This document shows, in pieces, positions 19,114 to 29,468 of a DNA stretch of 64,000 bases (position 1 is the first letter of the stretch; each line of letters begins with the position of its first letter). Under the pieces are notes generated by a model, which saw only the letters and a program-made list of their open reading frames with translations, was not told where the DNA came from and did not search any database. Source of the stretch: Takashimella koratensis (Eukaryota; Basidiomycota; Tremellomycetes; Trichosporonales; Tetragoniomycetaceae); the NCBI GenBank assembly GCA_003116875.1, contig BCKT01000006.1, positions 248,001-312,000 of the forward strand, in the 5' to 3' direction. The position numbers and the translations under genes were made by a program.

Positions 19114-19583
19114 TTGCTATTTCCTCTCGTGTCTAATTTCATTGAGCTCGTACAGATTGTGTGATACTTGGGTTACTTTATAGTTGTACATTCTTCTCCT
19201 GTGTGTTTGTCGTGTCTTTACGAGGGTCTTGATACGTTAATGTGTGTCGATACCATACAGTACCCATGCATGTCGCCAAAAACATTCCGAGGGCACATGA
19301 AAGTGCAAATCAGTCTGCATATGGAGCTAAGGTAAACGGAGTGGGGGTAAGTACTGTGGGTCTAGCCTAAAGTATGTTTGGTCAACTCTGCATCCAAACA
19401 CCGAAGAAAAGTACGGATCACGAGAGTTACGAGACAGTTCGACCCCTTTCCTTACTCTCCAGCTCTCTTCTGATTCTCTCAACAAGACTCAAACTTTCAA
19501 ATTGCAATCGAGAAATCATGGGAACGCGCAAACGGCTCGTCGGTGAAAAATCGATCCTTCGTTTGGCAAACGTCGGCGTGCTA
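19114..19583. other. Convergent region between MRC1 and the tandem array
   Basis: 470 bases. Its distal part (19369-19538) is one copy of a duplicated 3' flank described separately. No gene is seen. Confidence 0.4.
19369..19538. repeat. 3'-flank duplication, copy 1 (next to array gene 1)
   Basis: Matches 21323-21475 in the same orientation: both contain AGTACGGATCACGA, CAACAAGACTCAAACTT and an AGAAATCA ending. The two copies lie just downstream of array copies 1 and 2, so the duplication unit included 3' flanking DNA. Confidence 0.75.
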
Positions 19584-20705
19584 TCAATCAGGCGAGGGCG
19601 ACCGAGCAGTCGAAAATGGTTCCTGATCATTCTCACTCGTTGACGAGCGCGAATCTGATCCTCCACCGTCCGATTCATCGCTGTTTGGATCGTATATTGA
19701 GTCGTCCGATTCTGCTTCTTGCCTCTCGAGGTCATCCATGAGGAGTTCGAAAGTCACAATCGGTGGTAGGCGTGCGGGGCTAGCGGGGCTGTCCTCGGAT
19801 CCCGACGGCTCGGGATTGGCGCTCGCCGGCTTTGAGTGAGGCTGCCAAAACGTTTTCCCTATATGAAGGTTTTTGAGATTGGGGTCGGTAAACTCGAAGT
19901 TGGAGTAGTAAATGGGAAGGAAAGGAAAGGTGCAATTGTCTTCCGGTGTGTCACCCACGGTGAGGCAACCTGTCTTGAGAAAGGATTTCTCGGTCGGAGG
20001 CAGGTGACCCTCGATTTTCGCGTTCTCGCAAAGTGAAGAGATGCGCAAGTCCGGGTCCTGGTGAGAAGAGGTGCCAGACATGGAGTAGAAGAGTCGGACC
20101 GAAGGCGTGTCTGTTGTGCCCGCCCAGCTACAGCAGAGCCCCTTGAGCCGAAGGGAGGAGTCGTCAGTCGGCTCCGCCGGCTGGAGTTCCCCGCTTGTCT
20201 CCCGAACTGCCACTCCCAGGCACGCCCGTCTGCAGTTGTCAGCTCTCCAGGAGCAAAGTTGAGGATCCGTCCACTTTTCCTTCTCCGACAGCTCCAACAC
20301 ATTTCCAATGGCCCGAGACTCGGTAGAGATGTTGTTCATGCTGACTTTTGGATCGTCAGGTATGAACTGTAACTGTGTGGGGTCGAATATGGTGGGATCG
20401 ACCGCGTTGATGTCTCCGATCCACGTGAACGAAGAGAGTTTCCTATCGGTATGTTTGGGGCGGTCCACAGTGTAATTCCACGAGCCATCCACTTCTTCGA
20501 CCTGGAACCTCGTCTCAAGCTCGGACTGAGAAAGCACCGACAACGCTTCGAAGAGCGAGAGATGGTCTGGGGAAGGGGCTTGGGTAGCCGTCGAGGCAAC
20601 GTTTGGCGCTGTTGGGGTATCGTCCAGGAGGGTCGGGCAAAGATCCGACACGTCGGACGTCGGCTTGTTGTCGACGACGGCAAGTGGCTGTGCATTGGCG
20701 TTCAT
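19584..20705 (-). CDS. Array gene 1: unknown protein family, intact, 373 aa
   Basis: Single-exon gene with its ATG at 20703-20705. I do not recognise the family. By comparison with its neighbours it has a variable N-terminus, a first module (about residues 50-140: LFEALSVLSQSELETRF, then VDGSWNYTVDR) and a second module (about 160-300) with LRLKGLCCSW and GKTFWQPHS at the positions of the L+G..W and FW+PP motifs of the other copies. The tail is acidic and Ser-rich (ESDDSIYDPNSDESDGGG). No signal peptide or membrane segment is seen. It is the most divergent intact copy. It has the conserved two-part upstream module at 20804-20907, about 100-120 bases before the ATG. The function is unknown. 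Confidence 0.8.
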   Translation of the reverse strand: MNANAQPLAVVDNKPTSDVSDLCPTLLDDTPTAPNVASTATQAPSPDHLSLFEALSVLSQSELETRFQVEEVDGSWNYTVDRPKHTDRKLSSFTWIGDINAVDPTIFDPTQLQFIPDDPKVSMNNISTESRAIGNVLELSEKEKWTDPQLCSWRADNCRRACLGVAVRETSGELQPAEPTDDSSLRLKGLCCSWAGTTDTPSVRLFYSMSGTSSHQDPDLRISSLCENAKIEGHLPPTEKSFLKTGCLTVGDTPEDNCTFPFLPIYYSNFEFTDPNLKNLHIGKTFWQPHSKPASANPEPSGSEDSPASPARLPPIVTFELLMDDLERQEAESDDSIYDPNSDESDGGGSDSRSSTSENDQEPFSTARSPSPD

Positions 20706-20803
20706 GGTAGTGGTGGAGTAGTGGGGTGGTGCGAAAACCTGCTGATTGGTATGGGAGTTGTAAAAAGTGAATGAGAGGTGGGGAAGAAAAAAAAAGGCAG
20801 AAA

Positions 20804-20907
20804 CCCCCTTAGTATATGTGACAGGCCAATCGACTGAGCAGTCTCTCCCCTCGCATTCATCTTTTGTACCGTGTGGAAGGCGCACCCAAGGGTCTTCAAA
20901 GGAGAGG
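20804..20907 (-). promoter_or_regulatory. Array promoter module of gene 1
   Basis: On the plus strand, box 1 reads CCCCCTTAGTATATGTGACA (20804-20823; on the gene strand it holds CACATATAC, TATA-like). Box 2 reads TCTTTTGTACC (20860-20870), and box 3 reads TTCAAAGGAGAGG (20895-20907). The same three boxes in the same order recur before other array copies. Confidence 0.75.
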
Positions 20908-21322
20908 TGCGGCATGCTGAGGGAACGGAGCATGAAGAGCAAGAGAGAATGTGCGAGAATGTGGCAGGGGTAGGTAAGCCACATACTGTAGAGTGTGGGA
21001 TAGCTAGACGTCCGAGTAGGTGAATCCAGGCGTTCAAGTTGAGAATGTGTGAGTTGGCATTCTAGCCGCACGGCCTTACCCGATTGATTCTTAATGTCAC
21101 TACAACACTTAGCTCTGGATGACAGCACAGACTGATCTTCAGAGATTCAGGCCGTCTCGGCATACTGTACGGTAAGTACTGTCAGACACTGTGGCACACA
21201 GTTGCGAGACTGAGTTTTTATTGCATTCGCTCACCACATGGAAGCACCCTAAGCCGCCCACCATGGGAAGATACGGACATTCTGCATACTGATCGTGACC
21301 TGACAGAAGGGATACGGCTACC

Positions 21323-21475
21323 CAAAGTAGGCTTGGTCATCTCTGTATCGGAACATGAAAGCAAGTACGGATCACGAAGACAATTCAACTCCTCTCCTCG
21401 CTCGCTTCATCTTCTGTCATCCTCCCAACAAGACTCAAACTTCCAAATCGAGAGCAAGAAATCACGAACTCGCGG
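21323..21475. repeat. 3'-flank duplication, copy 2 (next to array copy 2)
   Basis: Partner of 19369-19538; shares AAGTACGGATCACGA and CAACAAGACTCAAACTT with small gaps. Confidence 0.75.
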
Positions 21476-21600
21476 GGACTGATGATCGGTCGCTGGGCTT
21501 TGGTCGAAACGCATCGTGAACCTCGGTGTGACGTTCAACGAATGACCAAGAACTCGAGACTCAAACATCGGTCATTGGACAGTCTTCATCGTCTGTTTTC

Positions 21601-22044
21601 TCAGCGGACAATCTCATCGTCGGAATCGTCCGCGCCATGCTGGACATCTTCCTCCACAAAGAAGTCGACGATGCTTGTCGGCGCTTCAGGACCGTCTCCG
21701 CCCGAGACAGTTATACCGGAGAGCTTGGAGAGGGCATCTGCGGTGATGAACGGAGGTCGCCAGAAAGCAAACCCAACATAAGAGAGATCGCTGGCAGCGT
21801 TTGACAAGTAAAAGTCGGGTAAAAACCCCGTGACCACCATCATTTTGCATGTGGTGTTGTCGGCTTCCGGACTCTGCACAGTGACGCGACATTGGATGAA
21901 GGACAGCTTCCCATTCGAAAGCTCCGGGCCCTCGATGGCCGCCTTTTCGTACGGGGGGGACACGGTCCAGTGCCGGTCTGAAGCCTCGGAGTTGTGGCTG
22001 AGGACCCTTCTCGCTGGCGAACAATGTGGCACTACCGTACACAC
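21601..22044 (-). pseudogene. Array copy 2: 5'-truncated remnant
   Basis: Open frame of 147 codons that begins without an ATG (GTG at its 5' end). It encodes only the second module: RHWTVSPPYEKAAIEG, a C-x-x-x-V strand pair, CKMMVVTGFLPDF, GFAFWRPPFITADALSKLSG and an acidic end (GADDSDDEIVR). This part is closely similar to array gene 5 (CTLLVVTGFLSDV and WTFWRPPFMTARDLSKL). The first module is missing, yet an orphan upstream module lies at 22226-22277, about 180 bases away. The simplest reading is deletion of the 5' half of a once complete gene. A transcript from an unusual start cannot be excluded. Confidence 0.75.
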
Positions 22045-22225
22045 GAAGAGAGAAAACCGAGGCTAGTAGAATGGGAAAGGGAGTCGCTGGAAACCCGCAT
22101 GGGTAAAGTACATGTCACAGTCCGCTTCAACCAGTAGTAGTAGTTCTCTCATGAGAAAATGAGTGTCATAGCGTCGTACTATACTCTCGTTAGCCTACTG
22201 TAAAGGTCTCTTACCTTCCTTTTGG

Positions 22226-22277
22226 TCTTTTGTACCAGTGTACCGAGTGGAGCCCTCCTTCCACGCGGTTCAAAGGA
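22226..22277 (-). promoter_or_regulatory. Relic array promoter module for copy 2
   Basis: TCTTTTGTACC (22226-22236) and TTCAAAGGA (22269-22277) match boxes 2 and 3 of the other copies. Box 1 is not recognisable. Confidence 0.6.
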
Positions 22278-22317
22278 TTGTTATTTCAACATGAGACGGG
22301 GAAGGAAACTCATGACA

Positions 22318-23451
22318 TCAAATGCACAGTATGGCAAGGGGTATGGAAAGTCGCGGAACAGGAAGAGTTTGGTATTCACACAGAGGCGACAAGGCTGATA
22401 GATCGCGAAAGACGAACTTATGGCCCGAAAACTGTGGTAAAGGTTGTTTGAGATAGCCTAACAGGGCGATTGCGGACTGAATATATCCACCCTCCGGGTC
22501 GTAGAGCAAATCGAAGTGAGTCTGGCTTTTGGTCGGAAACAACCACGAGGCGCTTCCTGTTGACGGTTCGGAGGTGCTGGTGTCGAAGGGGCTAGGGGTG
22601 ATTTGAACGGTGCCGCTGAACCCCGAAAACATGAGAAGATGAAAGTCGGCGACCTGCTTGTCTTTTCCCGATGCCGACATGGTGCAAGACACGTGTGCGA
22701 GGACGTATTCGGAGGTGAGATCGGGCATCTCACCAGTCGTGGTCAAGAAACCGATGTTGGAATGAGGTGAGATGGTCCATTGTATCGACCTTGGCTTCGA
22801 GTTTTCAGCCGGTGTCTGATCCGAGTTTCGTGTATCGGTGTGTATGACTTGCGCGAAGATTTGGACTCGGCTCGGGGCGTGGAAAGGGTCGGAGGAGTCA
22901 TTCCGGGACCACACGATCTCCTTGAGTCTCTTGAACTGCGAAAGTGCATTCCCACCCACTTCGGTCGTGACGCTGATATCGCCGATCACGATGCCGTGAC
23001 CAGAAGGTCTGACGACGGTGGCTTCGAAGTAGTGGTCTCTCTTCGGCGGAAAAGAGGGGCCGTTCTTTGACATCTCAGAAAGTTCCCCCTTCTTTTCTGA
23101 CACGAACGAGTCGATAGGTTCCGAGTCGATGTCAACCTCGTCAACCTCCAAGTCGGTGTCAAGCTCGTCACGCTTGACAAGTGGGGCGAGCTTGAGAAGC
23201 GTGGCGAGCTCGAGTAACTGTTCAAGCTTGGGTGTGATCGCGGCGATAACCTCGTTGTCTTGAGCATCCCATCGGAGGCGCTTCAGTGGATATTCGTTGT
23301 GATACTTGGGTTCCTCTGTGTCACGTCCGGGAAAGTCGAGCTCGAACTGGAGCGTCCCATCGAGTTCTTTGATGTCGGGGTACGCGGCTCGCAATTTGTC
23401 AACTGTGAGGGACGAGAGAGTTTCGAGATCGAAGGAAGGCCGAGACGCCAT
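22318..23451 (-). CDS. Array gene 3: unknown protein family, intact, 377 aa
   Basis: Single-exon gene, ATG at 23449-23451. The first module has ETLSSLTVDKLRAAYPDIKE, then LDGTLQFELDFPG and a polar-helical stretch (ITPKLEQLLELATLLKLAP). The second module has GIVIGDISVTTEVGG, FKRLKEIVWSRNDSSDPFH, VQIFAQVIHTD, QWTISPHSNIGFLTT, ADFHLLMFSGFSG and SWLFPTKSQTHFDLL. The C-terminus (about 55 residues after GGYIQSA) has no counterpart in the other copies. The family is not recognised. No signal peptide or membrane helix is seen. The second module is the closest relative of the downstream half of the chimeric copy 6. The function is unknown. Confidence 0.8.
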   Translation of the reverse strand: MASRPSFDLETLSSLTVDKLRAAYPDIKELDGTLQFELDFPGRDTEEPKYHNEYPLKRLRWDAQDNEVIAAITPKLEQLLELATLLKLAPLVKRDELDTDLEVDEVDIDSEPIDSFVSEKKGELSEMSKNGPSFPPKRDHYFEATVVRPSGHGIVIGDISVTTEVGGNALSQFKRLKEIVWSRNDSSDPFHAPSRVQIFAQVIHTDTRNSDQTPAENSKPRSIQWTISPHSNIGFLTTTGEMPDLTSEYVLAHVSCTMSASGKDKQVADFHLLMFSGFSGTVQITPSPFDTSTSEPSTGSASWLFPTKSQTHFDLLYDPEGGYIQSAIALLGYLKQPLPQFSGHKFVFRDLSALSPLCEYQTLPVPRLSIPLAILCI

Positions 23452-24092
23452 GTCGGTGTGATAGTAAGTGATTGGTTGAAGTTGAAGAATTCGTGCAAGA
23501 TGTGGGCTGTACAATGTTGCAGAGGAAAAAACGCGAGTGAGTAGGGGGATGAAACGAAACCCTGGGAGTAGACTGTCTGCTTAAGTGACAGCATGAGCGA
23601 CCAAACCCTTTCCCGGTCAGGTCTGCTCTTTTGTATCAAGTGGAGTAGGCCGCCGAAGCTTTTGAAAGGAGAGGTACATTGCCAGAGACTGAGAAAGAGA
23701 CGAAGAGAGAAAACGTGTGCTTAGGTGAGAAGGCAAGCGACATGGCTACAACGCAGCTTGCCTTTCAGCTGTTCGAGGGAGCACCAAAGGATTGACTCAT
23801 AACTCCCCGGCTGTGACGCCTTCCCTCTTTCACACACCTCTTGCCCTTTTTCTACTAGAGAACGTCACATAACATGTCCTCCTCCTTGGCAATATCTTTT
23901 CGGCGAAATGGAGCGCAATGATGACGCAGGACAGTAAGGAGATGGCTTGTGATTGAGACACTGAGCGCAAAGAAAAGCAAAAGTTGTACAAGGAGTATGC
24001 AGAGTACAGAAATTGATCAGCAAGGCCTCATTTTACAGAAGTCTGGTTGTGAATTGGAGAATACGACATGACAACAAGGCGGAAATTTAAAA
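23452..24092. other. Intergenic, array copies 3-4
   Basis: 641 bases. It holds the promoter module of gene 3, and further upstream TTGACTCATAACTCC (about 23793-23807), which recurs in similar form upstream of gene 5 near 27121-27138. No gene is seen. Confidence 0.4.
23585..23675 (-). promoter_or_regulatory. Array promoter module of gene 3
   Basis: GTGACAG (23585-23591; the TATATG part is changed to TTAA), TCTTTTGTA (23627-23635) and TTTGAAAGGAGAGGT (23661-23675). Order and spacing are as in the other copies. Confidence 0.65.
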
Positions 24093-24934
24093 TCAATTCA
24101 TCCAGCTTTTCCATTCAGGATCTTCGACTATCGCTAAAGCATCGGGATCATCCTCGCCGTCATAGTTGTCGCGCTCGAATCCGGTGGCGATGAAGAACTC
24201 GGATTGCACCCTTCCCGTGGAAAACGCCTGAATGCTGAACCGAGGTGGTACAAACCTTCCGAATGCAAGTTGCCCATGAAGCCTGATACGACCAGGAGAA
24301 TGCATTTCGCGCTGTGGCCGTCGGGTCCGTTCGCGATGGAACACTTGACGAGTGAGGGTGTCGACGTCGGAACTATCGGCTCGGCGTGTACAGTCCCATC
24401 GAGGGCGATTCCGGAGATGAGCCAGTCCGTCCGATCGTCAGACGGAGAGTTAGATGCCGCATGAATCAGTTGAGGACTGTCGCAGTGACCGTCTTCTCCC
24501 ACAAGACCCCCTTCAGCTTGTTGAGGAGTGAGTAATTGGCAATGTTTCCATTGGACTCGGTTACCTCGACATCACCCATCACACAGCCCCCAAACGCTTT
24601 AAATGCTTCGTGGACATCCGACATCCCAGCTCTGGAAAGTGGGATCCAACCAGTCCCTTCCCTTCCTGCCAAAAGTGAGACCGGATCCTCCAAAGTCCAG
24701 GGTGAAGGAACCGCCTTCGAGTTCAGCCCTGGTGTGTAGTCGGCTGGACAGCTCGTCGGCAATGTCTTCTGTTGTCGTCCAGGTACGATGAAACAAGGCA
24801 TATTGCTCATACTCGCCGTCGAACGTGACCGTAAGGGTGCCATTGATCGGCCCGTACATCTTTTCCAGTACTTCCAGAGGCACGGATGCGAATGAGTCCA
24901 CAGTGGGATGCGAAGGTGAGTTAGGAGATGGGAT
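24093..24934 (-). pseudogene. Array copy 4: start codon lost, several frameshifts
   Basis: Aligned with copy 6, the expected start falls at 24932-24934, which is ATC, not ATG (IPSPNSP here against MPSPAYP there). The first module is clear (VPLEVLEKMYGPINGTLTVT, ALFHRTWTT). Reading then shifts frame near 24640 (into EAFKAFGGCVMGDVEVTES and LLNKLKGVLW), again near 24500 (into DSPQLIHAASN, AKCILLVVSGFMG), and once more near 24220 (into VQSEFFIATGFERDN). The three shifts and the lost ATG make a functional product unlikely. The long apparent ORF over 24466-25326 starts without ATG and is an artefact. Its promoter box at 25047-25066 is partly kept, 113 bases upstream of the ATC. Confidence 0.75.
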
Positions 24935-25046
24935 GCTGGTGAAGCGAGCTGTATAATGGATCGTTGGCTGATCGTGCAAAATGTCGCTTGTATCTTGATA
25001 GCGATACCGAAGTTCAGTTGGGAGAGAAGCCAAAAATCAAGATATA

Positions 25047-25066
25047 CCCCCTCGTGTAAGTGACAG
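25047..25066 (-). promoter_or_regulatory. Array promoter box 1 before copy 4
   Basis: CCCCCTCGTGTAAGTGACAG, matching the consensus except that TATAT is altered. Boxes 2 and 3 are absent at the expected distance, where the tandem repeat lies instead. Confidence 0.6.
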
Positions 25067-25106
25067 AGCGAGCAAGTATGCAGTTCTGCTGTCATGAATT
25101 TACACA

Positions 25107-25235
25107 ACTCGACCACACCTACTTGACTGCATGTCCTCGACCACACGTACTCGACTGCATGCACTCGACGACATGCCTTCAACTGCATGACCTCAATCAC
25201 ATGCACTCGACCATACGTATTTGACCACACGTACA
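25107..25235. repeat. Degenerate tandem repeat, unit about 15-16 bp
   Basis: About eight imperfect units built on CTCGACCACACGTACT and CTCGACTGCATGCA. They sit where boxes 2 and 3 of the copy 4 promoter would be expected. There are no unique spacers, so this is not a CRISPR array. Confidence 0.65.
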
Positions 25236-25559
25236 AACAGATGCATTTGTTGAACTTGTAGACATTTATGAAGGCTGCCTGTCTGTATGCTTGGAATACT
25301 TTTTCCAAGAATCTAAAACTATTCATCTGTTACACTACCCAAGGCTCCCGTTACTGCTTGCCTTGCCGTGCACACTCACCTCACCTGTTATCCTTCCAAG
25401 TCCATGCATACTCCGCTACTGTCCTGACCAGTCACGCATACCTAGCACTTTGCCAAACCTTTACTGTCCACTTGTCTCTTGTTGCCTGTCCCTTGCAAGG
25501 GACAGGACCGTAAAGAAGAGGAGGAGAAAGGGGGGGGGAGAGGTTTAGAATTGCGAGCA

Positions 25560-25625
25560 CCCGTTAGTACGTGTGGCAGCCCAGACGACTTGAAACCCTC
25601 CTCATCCCCGTTTGACCTTTTGCTC
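25560..25625 (-). promoter_or_regulatory. Orphan, decayed array promoter module
   Basis: CCCGTTAGTACGTGTGGCAG (25560-25579) resembles box 1 (CCCTTAGTATATGTGACAG in gene 1), and GACCTTTTGCTC follows at 25614-25625 like box 2. No array coding remnant follows at the expected distance. It is either a relic of a lost copy or the displaced upstream part of copy 4. Confidence 0.4.
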
Positions 25626-25816
25626 TCAGTGCAACCATTTGCAAAGGCGACTGAAAGGAGGGGAAAATCTGTATCAGACGGAGAATGAAAACTGTTTAGT
25701 AAAGAGAGGGTGCTAGAACAGTGCAGCGCAAGGCGCAGAGATAGGTAAGCATGAGATGTCTGAACAAGGAGGCCCAAAGATTGAAATCCGTCATCCTAGT
25801 CCATGATGTTCGACGA

Positions 25817-26812
25817 CTAAAGAGTCGAGGCCGATTCTTCGGTCAAGTCGTCGTCCGAACCCCCTGATTCATCACTGCTGATACCCACAACCCCGTCAGT
25901 CGGAACACTTTGGTCGGACAAGAGCTCAACAAAAGGTTGCAGCCGTTCAGGCTCTCCTCCTGGGAGTTCTGTGCCCGTCAACTTTGACAAGTCCCTTGCC
26001 GTCATAAACGGCGGCCTCCAGAAAGTCCATCCTTGATCGGTGAATTGTTCGCCGGATGAGTTGCTGAATTTGACGTCGGACAGAAAGCCTGTTACCACCA
26101 GAAGGGTACATGTAGTGTTCATTGGTAGATCTGGTACGTTGAGGCGGCATTTGATGAGAAACGGGTCTGAACTTGTGGGCATTGGATCCCCTTTTATCTC
26201 GATCTTTGCTCCATCATAAGAACTCAGGACGGTCCAGTCGGCAATCGGACCGTTGCACGAGAGTAATTCCGGTCGAGGATCCTGCCCCGCGCACCACCTG
26301 ATACCCTTTAGTGTCTTCTGCGTCCTGTCAACAGTTGTGAGGGTTTGGCTATTCCCCACCAACAGTCCCAGATATGCCATAACACTGTGTTCGGTGTCCC
26401 AAGAGCACACTCCACGATCTTTCCAGCCAGGCATCCACTCTGTTAGTTTGCCCGAACCCTTGGATCTGAAGACTAAGTCGTCTGCGTCGTCGTGACGCTT
26501 CTCAAGCGAGAGACGTGAGTCATTAAAATATCCGAGAAACACTATTGGGTCAGTGACGTGCCATTTGTACTGATACAAATTGTATTCCTTCTTCTTGTAT
26601 TTGTCATCACACGTGATGTTCAGAGTTCCATCGATCTCCTGGTAGACTTCCGTTAGTTTGTCCGTAGACAATGACGACAAGACGTTGTAAAGGGGTCGGT
26701 CCCATTGAGGGTCAGAGAATGTTGGGGGAGTTGGCGGATCCCTTGATTCCATCGATGAAGTGTCTCCAGGGGAGAGTGGAGGGGTCAGGTCATCCATCGA
26801 TGCGTCTTCCAT
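25817..26812 (-). CDS. Array gene 5: unknown protein family, intact, 331 aa
   Basis: Single exon, ATG at 26810-26812 (the frame is open further upstream but offers only a TTG). The first module has NVLSSLSTDKLTEVYQEIDG, then TLNITCDDKYKKKEYNLYQY and KWHVTD. A CSWDTEHSVMAYLGLLVG segment parallels CSWRADNCRRACLGVAV in gene 1. The second module has LKGIRWCAG, ADWTVLSSYDGAKIEIKG, LIKCRLNV, CTLLVVTGFLSDVKFSN and WTFWRPPFMTARDLSKLTG, followed by an acidic Ser-rich tail (SSDESGGSDDDLTEES). It is the clearest representative of the family and closest to copy 2. The predicted composition is mainly beta strands, with no signal peptide or membrane helix. The function is unknown. Confidence 0.82.
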   Translation of the reverse strand: MEDASMDDLTPPLSPGDTSSMESRDPPTPPTFSDPQWDRPLYNVLSSLSTDKLTEVYQEIDGTLNITCDDKYKKKEYNLYQYKWHVTDPIVFLGYFNDSRLSLEKRHDDADDLVFRSKGSGKLTEWMPGWKDRGVCSWDTEHSVMAYLGLLVGNSQTLTTVDRTQKTLKGIRWCAGQDPRPELLSCNGPIADWTVLSSYDGAKIEIKGDPMPTSSDPFLIKCRLNVPDLPMNTTCTLLVVTGFLSDVKFSNSSGEQFTDQGWTFWRPPFMTARDLSKLTGTELPGGEPERLQPFVELLSDQSVPTDGVVGISSDESGGSDDDLTEESASTL

Positions 26813-27349
26813 GCTTGTAGCGATAGTCGTTGAGCGAAAGCTGGCAAATTTGTATGAGTGTCGCGGTTTGTGAATGGGTGGGGGAAAGAGAGATAGCCCC
26901 AAAAATCACCCTGTCCGTATATGTGACAAGCTAGACGAGGAAAAAGTCTCCTCTTCAGATCGATATTTTGTAGGTGATTTGGCCCCGAGGATCAAAGGGG
27001 TCGTGCGCACCCTCGAGACTGAGTTCGAACATGAGGTAGGTAGATCTTGCGAGAAACGGATAGCGAGCAATGTGGCAGTACACAGGACACAGGCGAGAGA
27101 GGTTGTATGTCTGTAATGTCTGACTTACTCATAACTCCTCGAAGCCGGTGGTGTTCTGTCAGGATATGTGATATCTCGAACAATGTGACGGGTACCATCT
27201 CGCTCCCACATCTCGGGGTGCACGGAAAGCCCTGTATACAGCGTGGTACATGAATAGATAAAACCCATAGATTATCCCAAGCTCCCCCGAGTGGCATCTG
27301 TGAGGAAGTCTGCAGACGTCGTTGCATGCATCCCCAGAGCATCAGAGAC
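26813..27349. other. Intergenic, array copies 5-6
   Basis: 537 bases with the promoter module of gene 5 and upstream sequence resembling that of gene 3 (TTACTCATAACTCC near 27125-27138). No gene is seen. Confidence 0.4.
26907..27000 (-). promoter_or_regulatory. Array promoter module of gene 5
   Basis: CACCCTGTCCGTATATGTGA (26907-26926, followed by CAA), TTTTGTAGG (26965-26973) and ATCAAAGGGG (26991-27000). Box 1 is 95 bases from the ATG. Confidence 0.65.
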
Positions 27350-28700
27350 CTAACACCAGCCTCCATCATCAAAAAGGAACTCGCACGTCGCGGTCGGAAA
27401 CGGCCAGAAGGCATGCCCTTTCATCTCTTCGTCGCCCTGGCTCAAGCCTCTGAAAACGACATTCGCATCGAAGCCCGGGACGAAGAGGAGGTCGAAATCG
27501 GCAATGTGTACATTTTGACCGGACACCACGGTTGTCAAAATCGCTTCGGAGAGAAAGCAACCTGAGTTGTAGGATCGCTCGTCGAAAGGGGTTGTCAAGA
27601 ATGCCTGGTCGGAATGTGAGGAGATGGTCCAACCTGTGGGGCTGTCGTCCGGATTTCTTTTCGGATCTTTTGTTATGATAGCTAGCACCTTATAGGACGT
27701 AGTATAGCAACCCCTTCATACCAAAAGACCAGTCCGTTATTCTCCTCTTTCTCGCATGTACTCATTACTCTCTAGCTACCCGATTGGCTAGTTTAACATC
27801 TTTTGCCGGGGCGAGGACGACTTGAGCAAACAATTCGGTGTCTTGGAAACTGCTCAAGGGGTCCTTTTTGTCTTTGGTTCGCCAGACAACCCCTCTGAAA
27901 CGTTCGAGCTGTTCACGACTCTGGAGGCTCCCGCCGATGGAGATGCTGACGGGGCCACACACGAATGCAGCCACGTATTCAGCGGACCCATCGGTACACA
28001 AGAAAGCGACCAAACCCCGGAATCCGCCGCCGACAAGGAGAGTACATTTGGCGGTGTGACCAATCTTCTCGTTCGTGATGGAGCACTCGACAAGAGAGGG
28101 TTTGGAAAACGGGATTTCCTTCTGGCTTTGAACGGTTGGCTCATCTACCTCGAAGCAGCTCCAGTCCGTCTCAGGGCTGGTCGGATCGTTCGAGGAAGCG
28201 TACACGAGCTGGACAGCACCAGGGCCAACTCGGGCACTCCAAAAAATCCCTTTGAGAGAGTTGAGTGGGGAGTCATTGATCTTGTGGTTGCTGTCATTGG
28301 TGAGTGTGACTGTGACTTTGCCAATGATGTAACCTCCAAATGCACGGGAGAGGCCCCTTGTTAGCTAGGTATGCGAGTAAACGGTCTTCACCAATCTCCC
28401 TTCTTTCAACCCCTCGAATCGCTCTCCATTACAGCGCCATTCCTGTCCTTTCCTCTCTAAGAGAACCCCTGGCCTCATCAGAGACGAGCTAACTTCGGTG
28501 CGATTCGCTGTGAGAATTCCTGAGATCGCTCGAGCGGTAGCGGGGTCCGAAGTCCAGGTATGATGGGCCAAGGGGTAAGATTTCTCGTCAATTTCAACGG
28601 TTACCGCCATCGTGTTCTCGACGATCCCGTACAAGGCGACCAAGTCGTCCAGAGTAGCAGATGCCAATTTGTCGAGGGTTGGGTAGGCGGGACTTGGCAT
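27350..28700 (-). pseudogene. Array copy 6: chimeric double-module gene with an amber stop
   Basis: Starts at ATG 28698-28700 (MPSPAYPTLDKL). The frame runs through a first module (ATLDDLVALYGIVENTM, HHTWTSD) to an in-frame TAG at 28365-28367. It then continues in the same frame with LSRAFGGYIIGKVTVTL, LNSLKGIFWSARVG, QLVYASSND, CTLLVGGGFRG and directly into a second copy of module two resembling gene 3 (CGPVSISIGG, FRGVVWRTKDKKDP, TELFAQVVLAP). After a 91-base interruption (27689-27779) it resumes with IITKDPKRNPDD, GWTISSHSDQAFLTT, ADFDLLFVPGFDA and AFWPFPTATCEFLFD. So it is a fusion of two copies, with one nonsense codon that no canonical intron removes. It could still give a 111-residue short product. 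Confidence 0.7.
27689..27779 (-). other. Interruption in copy 6: young intron or small insertion
   Basis: Read as an intron it runs GTAGCT...ATAAG and splices in phase (CGG to GTG). Read as an insertion, the coding frame resumes exactly if the DNA between two CTAGC copies (27681-27685 and 27787-27791) plus one copy is removed (106 bases), as for an element with a 5-bp target duplication. Paralogue gene 3 has no interruption here. Confidence 0.5.
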
Positions 28701-29468
28701 GTTCGAAAGGTCGAAGTGTCGGTCGGAGCGGTGGTTGTTGAAATTTGGTTGGTAAGTGCGAAATGTGAGAGAGTGGGGGAAAAGAGAAAGAGTTGGGAGA
28801 CAATCCCCCTCAGTATATGTGACAGCACGAGTAGCCGAAAGCCTCACCTCACCAGGACTGGTCTTTTGTGCCCTGTGAAGCCCAGTGGAGCCAAGCGCCG
28901 ACACCTTGAAAGGATCAGTTCCACGAGTCACGTCTGCCACATTGTCACAAAGCCTGCCACATTGCACTTCATGCATGGTGTATTTCGAGTCACATACAAC
29001 TCGTGCACAAGGCAGAGAACGGGTACGTACGAATAATTCGCCCGAGAGGCGATGGTATAGAAACGATGGTAGTGAAGAAAATAGGACAAAACGTAATGTA
29101 GGGACCCCAGAGAGGAACGAGAGAAAGAAAGTAGAGAAGGACGAGTAGGAGATGAGATGACAAGAACAGGATTTATCGACATCATCGTGAAGAACCCGGA
29201 GAGATACAAGACGATGAATGCACAACGTGTGGCGTTTAGCGTTTGACGAAAGGGATGTGGAGACGATTTCAACTTTTAGGAAGCGACGTGAAGAACGTGG
29301 GTGTGAAACCGGGAAGGGAAGAGAGAAAGAGAAGCAAAATGATGCTGAGAGGTCGGGATTTTATGGTACAACAAGGACATCTTTCGTGGGTTGTGTGTGC
29401 AAACGCCTAAGAGAAAGCATAGCAGAAAGAGAAAAGAGGAAGATTTGGTAGTCGGTACTAGGAAGAGA
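28701..29468. other. Intergenic between the array and RIM15
   Basis: 768 bases: the promoter of copy 6, then the RIM15 3' region. No further array coding remnant is recognised. Confidence 0.4.
28805..28914 (-). promoter_or_regulatory. Array promoter module of copy 6
   Basis: CCCCCTCAGTATATGTGACA (28805-28824), TCTTTTGTGCC (28862-28872) and CTTGAAAGGA (28905-28914). Box 1 is 105 bases from the ATG. It is the best preserved module although the gene is broken. Confidence 0.7.

What the first reader, a model, noticed from the sequence alone, without database searches (positions are those of the whole stretch)
19584..28700. Six-copy tandem array of an unrecognised, fast-decaying protein family
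Six same-strand copies in 9.1 kb share two modules (an xxLxxLSxDKLxxxY..IDGTL segment, and an L+GxxW ... C-LLVVxGF ... FWxPPF segment) but match no family I know. Three are intact single-exon genes amid intron-dense neighbours, and three are broken in different ways. Low similarity among intact copies, acidic tails and frequent loss point to birth-and-death evolution, as in recognition or conflict gene families. The function is unknown and that comparison is inference.
Basis: partly seen in the sequence, partly recalled or inferred. Interest (0 to 1): 0.88.

Follow-up and report, generated by a model that had tools for sequence, protein, structure and literature searches.

The report
Fast-evolving unknown fungal gene family
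A genome that looks fungal carries several tandem clusters of one-exon genes for an unrecognised, fast-changing protein family, some sharing a private promoter; the reported array is one such cluster, and what the proteins do is not known.

Summary
The array is real but differs from the report. It has six loci and seven domain units, because locus 6 is two units fused; locus 6 is also cut by a 128-bp repeated element, and loci 2 and 4 are broken. Units pair as 4~6N/6A, 3~6B and 2~5, so in transcription order it reads as a three-gene block twice (6A,6B,5 / 4,3,2) plus copy 1. It is not the whole family: chained whole-genome protein searches and profiles reach a second tandem cluster on contig C9 (seven units) and a pair on C11. 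Left out in turn, 12 of 12 tested members are recovered (E <= 6e-4). A promoter module lies upstream of copies 1, 3, 5, 6, of a gene-less stretch in the array, and of one C9 gene on another contig. Pfam, PDB sequences (one weak chance-like row) and fold searches give no convincing match; two word-based protein searches with array sequences found nothing, but C9/C11 members were not searched there. The modelled domain is all-beta, modest confidence. Birth-and-death evolution is well supported within this one genome. The recognition/conflict role stays untested inference, and lineage restriction could not be properly tested.

The parts
19584..20705 (-). Copy 1, intact single-exon ORF, 373 aa, acidic tail
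20812..20867 (-). Type I promoter module upstream of copy 1
21604..22020 (-). Copy 2, C-terminal half only; nearest to copy 5
22318..23451 (-). Copy 3, open single-exon ORF, 377 aa, B-type domain, unrelated C-terminal tail
23579..23634 (-). Type I promoter module upstream of copy 3
24096..24937 (-). Copy 4, pseudogene in pieces (24602-24937, 24490-24612, 24200-24481, 24096-24203) in changing frames; nearest to 6N/6A
25540..25670 (-). Type I-like promoter with no coding unit of its own directly below it ('ghost')
   Evidence: z 8.4 to the copy 6 promoter, 7.6 to copy 1, 0 of 200 shuffles as high
25817..26812 (-). Copy 5, intact single-exon ORF, 331 aa, acidic tail
26917..26971 (-). Type I promoter module upstream of copy 5
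28368..28700 (-). Copy 6 N-module, ending at an in-frame stop
28002..28364 (-). Copy 6 A-domain; nearest to copy 4
27798..27980 (-). Copy 6 B-domain, first piece; nearest to copy 3
27671..27798 (.). 128-bp repeated element inside the copy 6 B-domain, TG...CA ends, flanked by TCTTT on both sides
   Evidence: six other places in the genome at 78-99% identity
27353..27661 (-). Copy 6 B-domain, second piece; nearest to copy 3
28813..28869 (-). Type I promoter module upstream of copy 6

Best explanation
The array is one of at least three clusters (C6, C9, C11) of a single fast-diverging gene family. Members are one-exon genes for soluble proteins: a short beta-rich N-module, one all-beta domain and in some an acidic tail. 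SHOWN by sequence: homology of the members; a type I promoter shared by the array and a gene on another contig, and a second promoter type within C9; paired units that fit the doubling of a three-gene block; fusion, frameshift and mobile-element damage. INFERRED: the genes sharing a promoter are expressed together, and unequal exchange between copies makes and destroys units. The proteins most likely act as intracellular binding modules whose surfaces diversify on a kept core, as in recognition or conflict repertoires. The evolutionary part is about 0.9 likely; the recognition/conflict role about 0.25.
For: Leave-one-out profiles recover 12 of 12 tested members, E 2.1e-45 to 5.2e-4. Chained whole-genome searches link the clusters. 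Trees: 2+5 at 99/99, 3+6B at 99/98, N-modules of 4+6 at 97/97. Type I promoter pattern: four places in the genome, each upstream of an array copy, reversed control 0; the C9_899 promoter matches it at z 6.7-15.1, 69-85% over 84-132 aligned bases to copies 1, 3, 5 and 6. Frameshifts and element insertion. No leader or membrane segment by hydropathy. All-beta domain model, best pLDDT 71, pTM 0.60.
Against: No result tests recognition or conflict. No expression data. dN/dS 0.30-0.37 in six of nine pairs (three saturated) shows constraint on average, not positive selection. Links between clusters by the array-only profile are partly weak: E 4.7e-12 to 2.4 for the nine outside ORFs, and C9_899 was reached by no single-protein genome search. 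The five domain models disagree (mean pLDDT 71, 71, 63, 44, 36). Copies 4 and 6A are not resolved as a pair in the domain tree.
Confidence: 0.5

Rival explanations
1. An ordinary lineage-specific paralogous family that serves one growth stage or stress, diverging under loose constraint, with no recognition role.
For: Shared private promoters suggest one expression programme; dN/dS about 0.3; short, orphan, stage-regulated genes are common in fungi (lineage-specific genes of Neurospora, PMC10684091, abstract and passages).
Against: Does not by itself explain why so many copies are kept and so many lost.
Confidence: 0.4
2. A decaying relic: the copies are mostly dead or dying and no longer matter.
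For: Of 15 loci, six are impaired: copies 2, 4, 6, C9_898 and C9_903 are broken, and C9_907 shows no in-frame ATG ahead of its domain.
Against: Nine loci keep open frames with an ATG; type I promoters stay alignable across contigs where the proteins hardly are; dN/dS well below 1.
Confidence: 0.15
3. A secreted effector-type cluster, as known from smut fungi (recalled).
For: Tandem, single-exon, fast-evolving genes.
Against: No hydrophobic leader: best 10-residue hydropathy near the N-terminus 0.56-0.80 for copies 1, 3, 5 and at most 1.88 among 12 sequences. Hydropathy only; no signal-peptide program was run.
Confidence: 0.04

Closest known systems
Fungal NLR repertoires (PMC4986451, passages seen)
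   Same: Multi-copy intracellular proteins; birth-and-death evolution.
   Different: No NACHT or NB-ARC match in Pfam; small one-domain proteins; polymorphism between strains not tested here.
Lineage-specific genes of Neurospora (PMC10684091, abstract and passages)
   Same: Short genes without recognised domains, in local groups.
   Different: There most lie near telomeres with HET-domain genes; here C9 and C6 clusters lie well inside 1.28- and 1.51-Mb contigs and the C11 pair about 70 kb from a contig end, and copies form one tandem family.
MATH-BTB and F-box type expanded families of plants and nematodes (recalled)
   Same: Expanded genes with a diversifying binding domain.
   Different: No MATH, BTB or F-box match in Pfam; fold comparison inconclusive.

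Membership tests
Tandem birth-and-death gene family | Homologous neighbouring copies | tested here: met
Tandem birth-and-death gene family | Pseudogenes beside intact copies | tested here: met
Tandem birth-and-death gene family | Copy gain and loss between strains or species | not testable with these tools
   No relative of this genome is held
Fungal NLR | NACHT or NB-ARC domain | tested here: not met
   No such Pfam row
HET-domain proteins | HET domain | tested here: not met
   No such Pfam row
Secreted effector cluster | Signal peptide | tested here: inconclusive
   No hydrophobic leader by simple hydropathy; no signal-peptide program run
Galectin, lipocalin, tudor or MATH-like beta folds | Fold match | tested here: inconclusive
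Pheromone-responsive genes of smuts (element ACAAAGGGA, PMC3248468, passages seen) | The element upstream, at most one mismatch | tested here: not met
   2 sites in 12 upstream regions, 1.1 expected, 32% of 200 random draws as high

The most novel reading that the evidence does not exclude
An undescribed family of small intracellular all-beta proteins that serves as a diversifying recognition or conflict repertoire in a fungus, built on neither the NLR nor the HET plan, and switched on together by a private promoter.
Probability: 0.2. Interest if true: 0.78.

Novelty: new member of a known kind. Interest (0 to 1): 0.5.

Why it matters
The family is easy to miss because its members are so unlike: three intact copies searched alone see only their own array. 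The shared promoter gives a second handle: it ties clusters together and predicts joint expression, which one RNA-seq series could test. If the copies vary between strains and affect fusion or virus spread, this would be a new kind of fungal recognition repertoire.

Tried and rejected
(1) Own-genome searches with copies 5, 3 and 1 alone: array only at E <= 10.

(2) Word-based protein search with copy 5 (3083 candidates) and with the array alignment A2 (7998 candidates, a capped list): none at E <= 10. Control: the RIM15 neighbour finds 279, the ten best 64-69% identical, so the set holds relatives at that distance but perhaps none nearer.

(3) NCBIfam, three array proteins: one weak row, P2X E 0.11. 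PDB sequences with copy 5: five rows, the best SRP43 at E 0.002 over residues 109-139, with two more SRP43 rows; judged chance because it is a short linker stretch and the alignment A4 of 11 members gives none at E <= 5.

(5) A viral-collection hit for one C9 protein, 30% over 68 residues, E 3e-4 against candidates only: judged chance after reading the ORFs there.

(6) C9:901399-902283, an ORF inside the C9 cluster that looked alike by eye: not significant, not counted.

(7) Introns as the cause of the breaks: by eye no room at the three frame changes of copy 4; one break of copy 6 is a genome-wide repeat; the in-frame stop of copy 6 was not resolved. Solo LTR or MITE is undecided: the 5-bp duplication is clear for copy 6 and by eye for the C10 copy, not for the others; of four fetched neighbourhoods, three show one match each and the C1 one shows a second, partial match of 48 bases about 2.7 kb away on the same strand, which could be part of a longer element.

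(8) Smut pheromone element: not met. Six other short words were counted; only AAAGGA and ACAAAAG were never reached by 2000 background draws, and promoters that share descent are not independent.

(9) Papers: listings and passages of three papers; no title or abstract listed there names this family. The species was not identified; 'fungal' rests on the RIM15 neighbour and the look of the genome.

Full report
OBSERVATION. The window lies on contig C6 of a 25.1-Mb, 24-contig genome, taken to be fungal from its RIM15 neighbour (names); the species was not identified. The reported array is real. Copies 1 (19584-20705), 3 (22318-23451) and 5 (25817-26812) are open single-exon frames on the minus strand. 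phmmer with these against all window ORFs finds the other units, although copies 3 and 5 find each other only weakly (E 0.14-0.23). Pair scores against 200 shuffles: z 33 for 2~5, 27 and 22 for 4~6A and 4N~6N, 12-18 for 3~6B, 16.5 for 1~5.

ANATOMY. Read in three frames, copy 4 changes frame three times with no room for introns by eye and has no ATG ahead of its domain. Copy 2 keeps the C-terminal half. Copy 6 holds an N-module, an A-domain and directly behind it a second (B) domain, with an in-frame stop between N and A. The B-domain is interrupted at 27671-27798 by 128 bp with TG...CA ends and TCTTT on both sides. That stretch matches six other places in the genome at 78-99% identity, one of them over 55 bases only: a mobile-type repeat, solo LTR or MITE undecided. 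Copy 3 ends in a tail unlike the others.

BLOCK STRUCTURE. A tree of 16 domain rows joins 2 with 5 (99/99) and 3 with 6B (99/98), leaving 4 and 6A unresolved. The N-modules of 4 and 6 join at 97/97 in a five-row tree that carries a long-branch warning. In transcription order the array is 6A,6B,5 / 4,3,2 / 1: a three-gene block twice plus copy 1, with 6A and 6B fused. By hand count, three pairs on six positions fall in this order in 1 of 15 ways, so it is suggestive. A type I-like promoter at 25540-25670 without a coding unit of its own hints at a lost unit (inference).

THE FAMILY IS LARGER. Copies 5, 3 and 1 alone find only the array in the whole genome at E <= 10. A copy 6 A/B piece weakly finds C9:898340 (E 0.07) and C11:1119402 (E 0.89). 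Chaining from these gives C11:1121594 (2.5e-8) and C9 matches between 903 and 910 kb (3.7e-13 to 0.011; 7.5e-36 to 1.4e-6). In the fetched 40 kb of C9 and 30 kb of C11 an iterated profile gives seven C9 and two C11 units (E-values inflated by self-inclusion). The array-only profile against the same 2781 ORFs gives C9:898166 4.7e-12, C11:1119021 2.1e-6, C9:903203 3.1e-5, C9:909054 2.4e-4, C9:906240 8.3e-4, C9:907620 7.5e-3, C11:1121480 0.025, C9:904208 0.077, C9:899178 2.4. Leaving each of 12 out in turn, 12 of 12 are recovered at E 2.1e-45 to 5.2e-4; fragments 2, 4, 6A and 6B were not among the 12. Open frames with an ATG: copies 1, 3, 5; C9_899, 904, 906, 909; C11a, C11b (nine). C9_898 and C9_903 change frame within overlapping ORFs; C9_907 shows no in-frame ATG ahead of its domain.

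PROMOTERS. Upstream regions of copies 1, 3, 5 and 6 align at 61-67% in five of six pairs. A pattern of two blocks, ACAAAANA and YTGTCACWTAWRC 20-40 bases apart, occurs four times in the genome, each upstream of one of these copies, and 0 times reversed. It was written from these promoters, so the point is that it occurs nowhere else. The promoter of C9_899, on another contig, was not used to write it and matches them at z 6.7-15.1 (100 shuffles), 69-85% over 84-132 aligned bases: support for one family that does not rest on the proteins. C9_904, 906, 907 and 909 share a second type (z 8.7-18.5). AAAGGA occurs in 11 of 12 upstream regions, 16 sites against 3.1 expected (one of six words tried). 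The smut pheromone element is not enriched.

PROTEIN. Pfam: 3, 8 and 11 sequences, two weak rows only, E 0.26 and 1. No hydrophobic leader or membrane segment by hydropathy; pI 4.3-5.8 in 12 sequences. Copy 5 domain model: nine strands and one short helix, best of five pLDDT 71, pTM 0.60, from nine rows; two of the five models are poor. Fold searches give no match. The fold is all-beta and unassigned.

SELECTION. Of nine aligned pairs, six give dS 1.34-2.09 and dN 0.44-0.73 (ratio 0.30-0.37); three are saturated. The units were under protein-level constraint for much of their history; positive selection cannot be judged.

READING. Shown by sequence: one family, three clusters, repeated loss and a fusion, shared promoters. 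Inferred: joint expression and turnover by unequal exchange. A recognition or conflict role is plausible by analogy with fungal NLR repertoires (PMC4986451, passages), but no result here tests it; a stage-specific family under loose constraint is at least as likely. Whether the family is confined to this lineage is open: two word-based searches found nothing, but near relatives may be missing from that set and C9/C11 members were not searched.

CHECK. On re-reading the calls I mended the account of the second element match in the C1 neighbourhood, the acidic ends of the C11 genes, the SRP43 row and several ranges; none of these changes the odds.

Noticed in passing
window 19366-19544 and 21321-21490: Noncoding stretches downstream of copies 1 and 2 are 69% identical over 179 bases, more alike than the coding parts; on the + strand they read like a gene leader ending in ATG in one copy only.
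   Followed up: partly
window 25108-25233: Array of 14/28-base repeats between copy 4 and the gene-less promoter.
   Followed up: no
L045 6483-7430 (C11b): C-terminus with repeated EIIDSP and EIIDLTEDD, like a SUMO-interacting motif (recalled, untested).
   Followed up: no
G000:C9:901399-902283 (L041 6399-7280): An orphan 295-aa single-exon ORF sits inside the C9 cluster; it resembles the family by eye but not by any score.
   Followed up: yes
window 27671-27798: 128-bp repeated element, 99% identical to a copy on C10 and so probably recent in the genome.
   Followed up: partly
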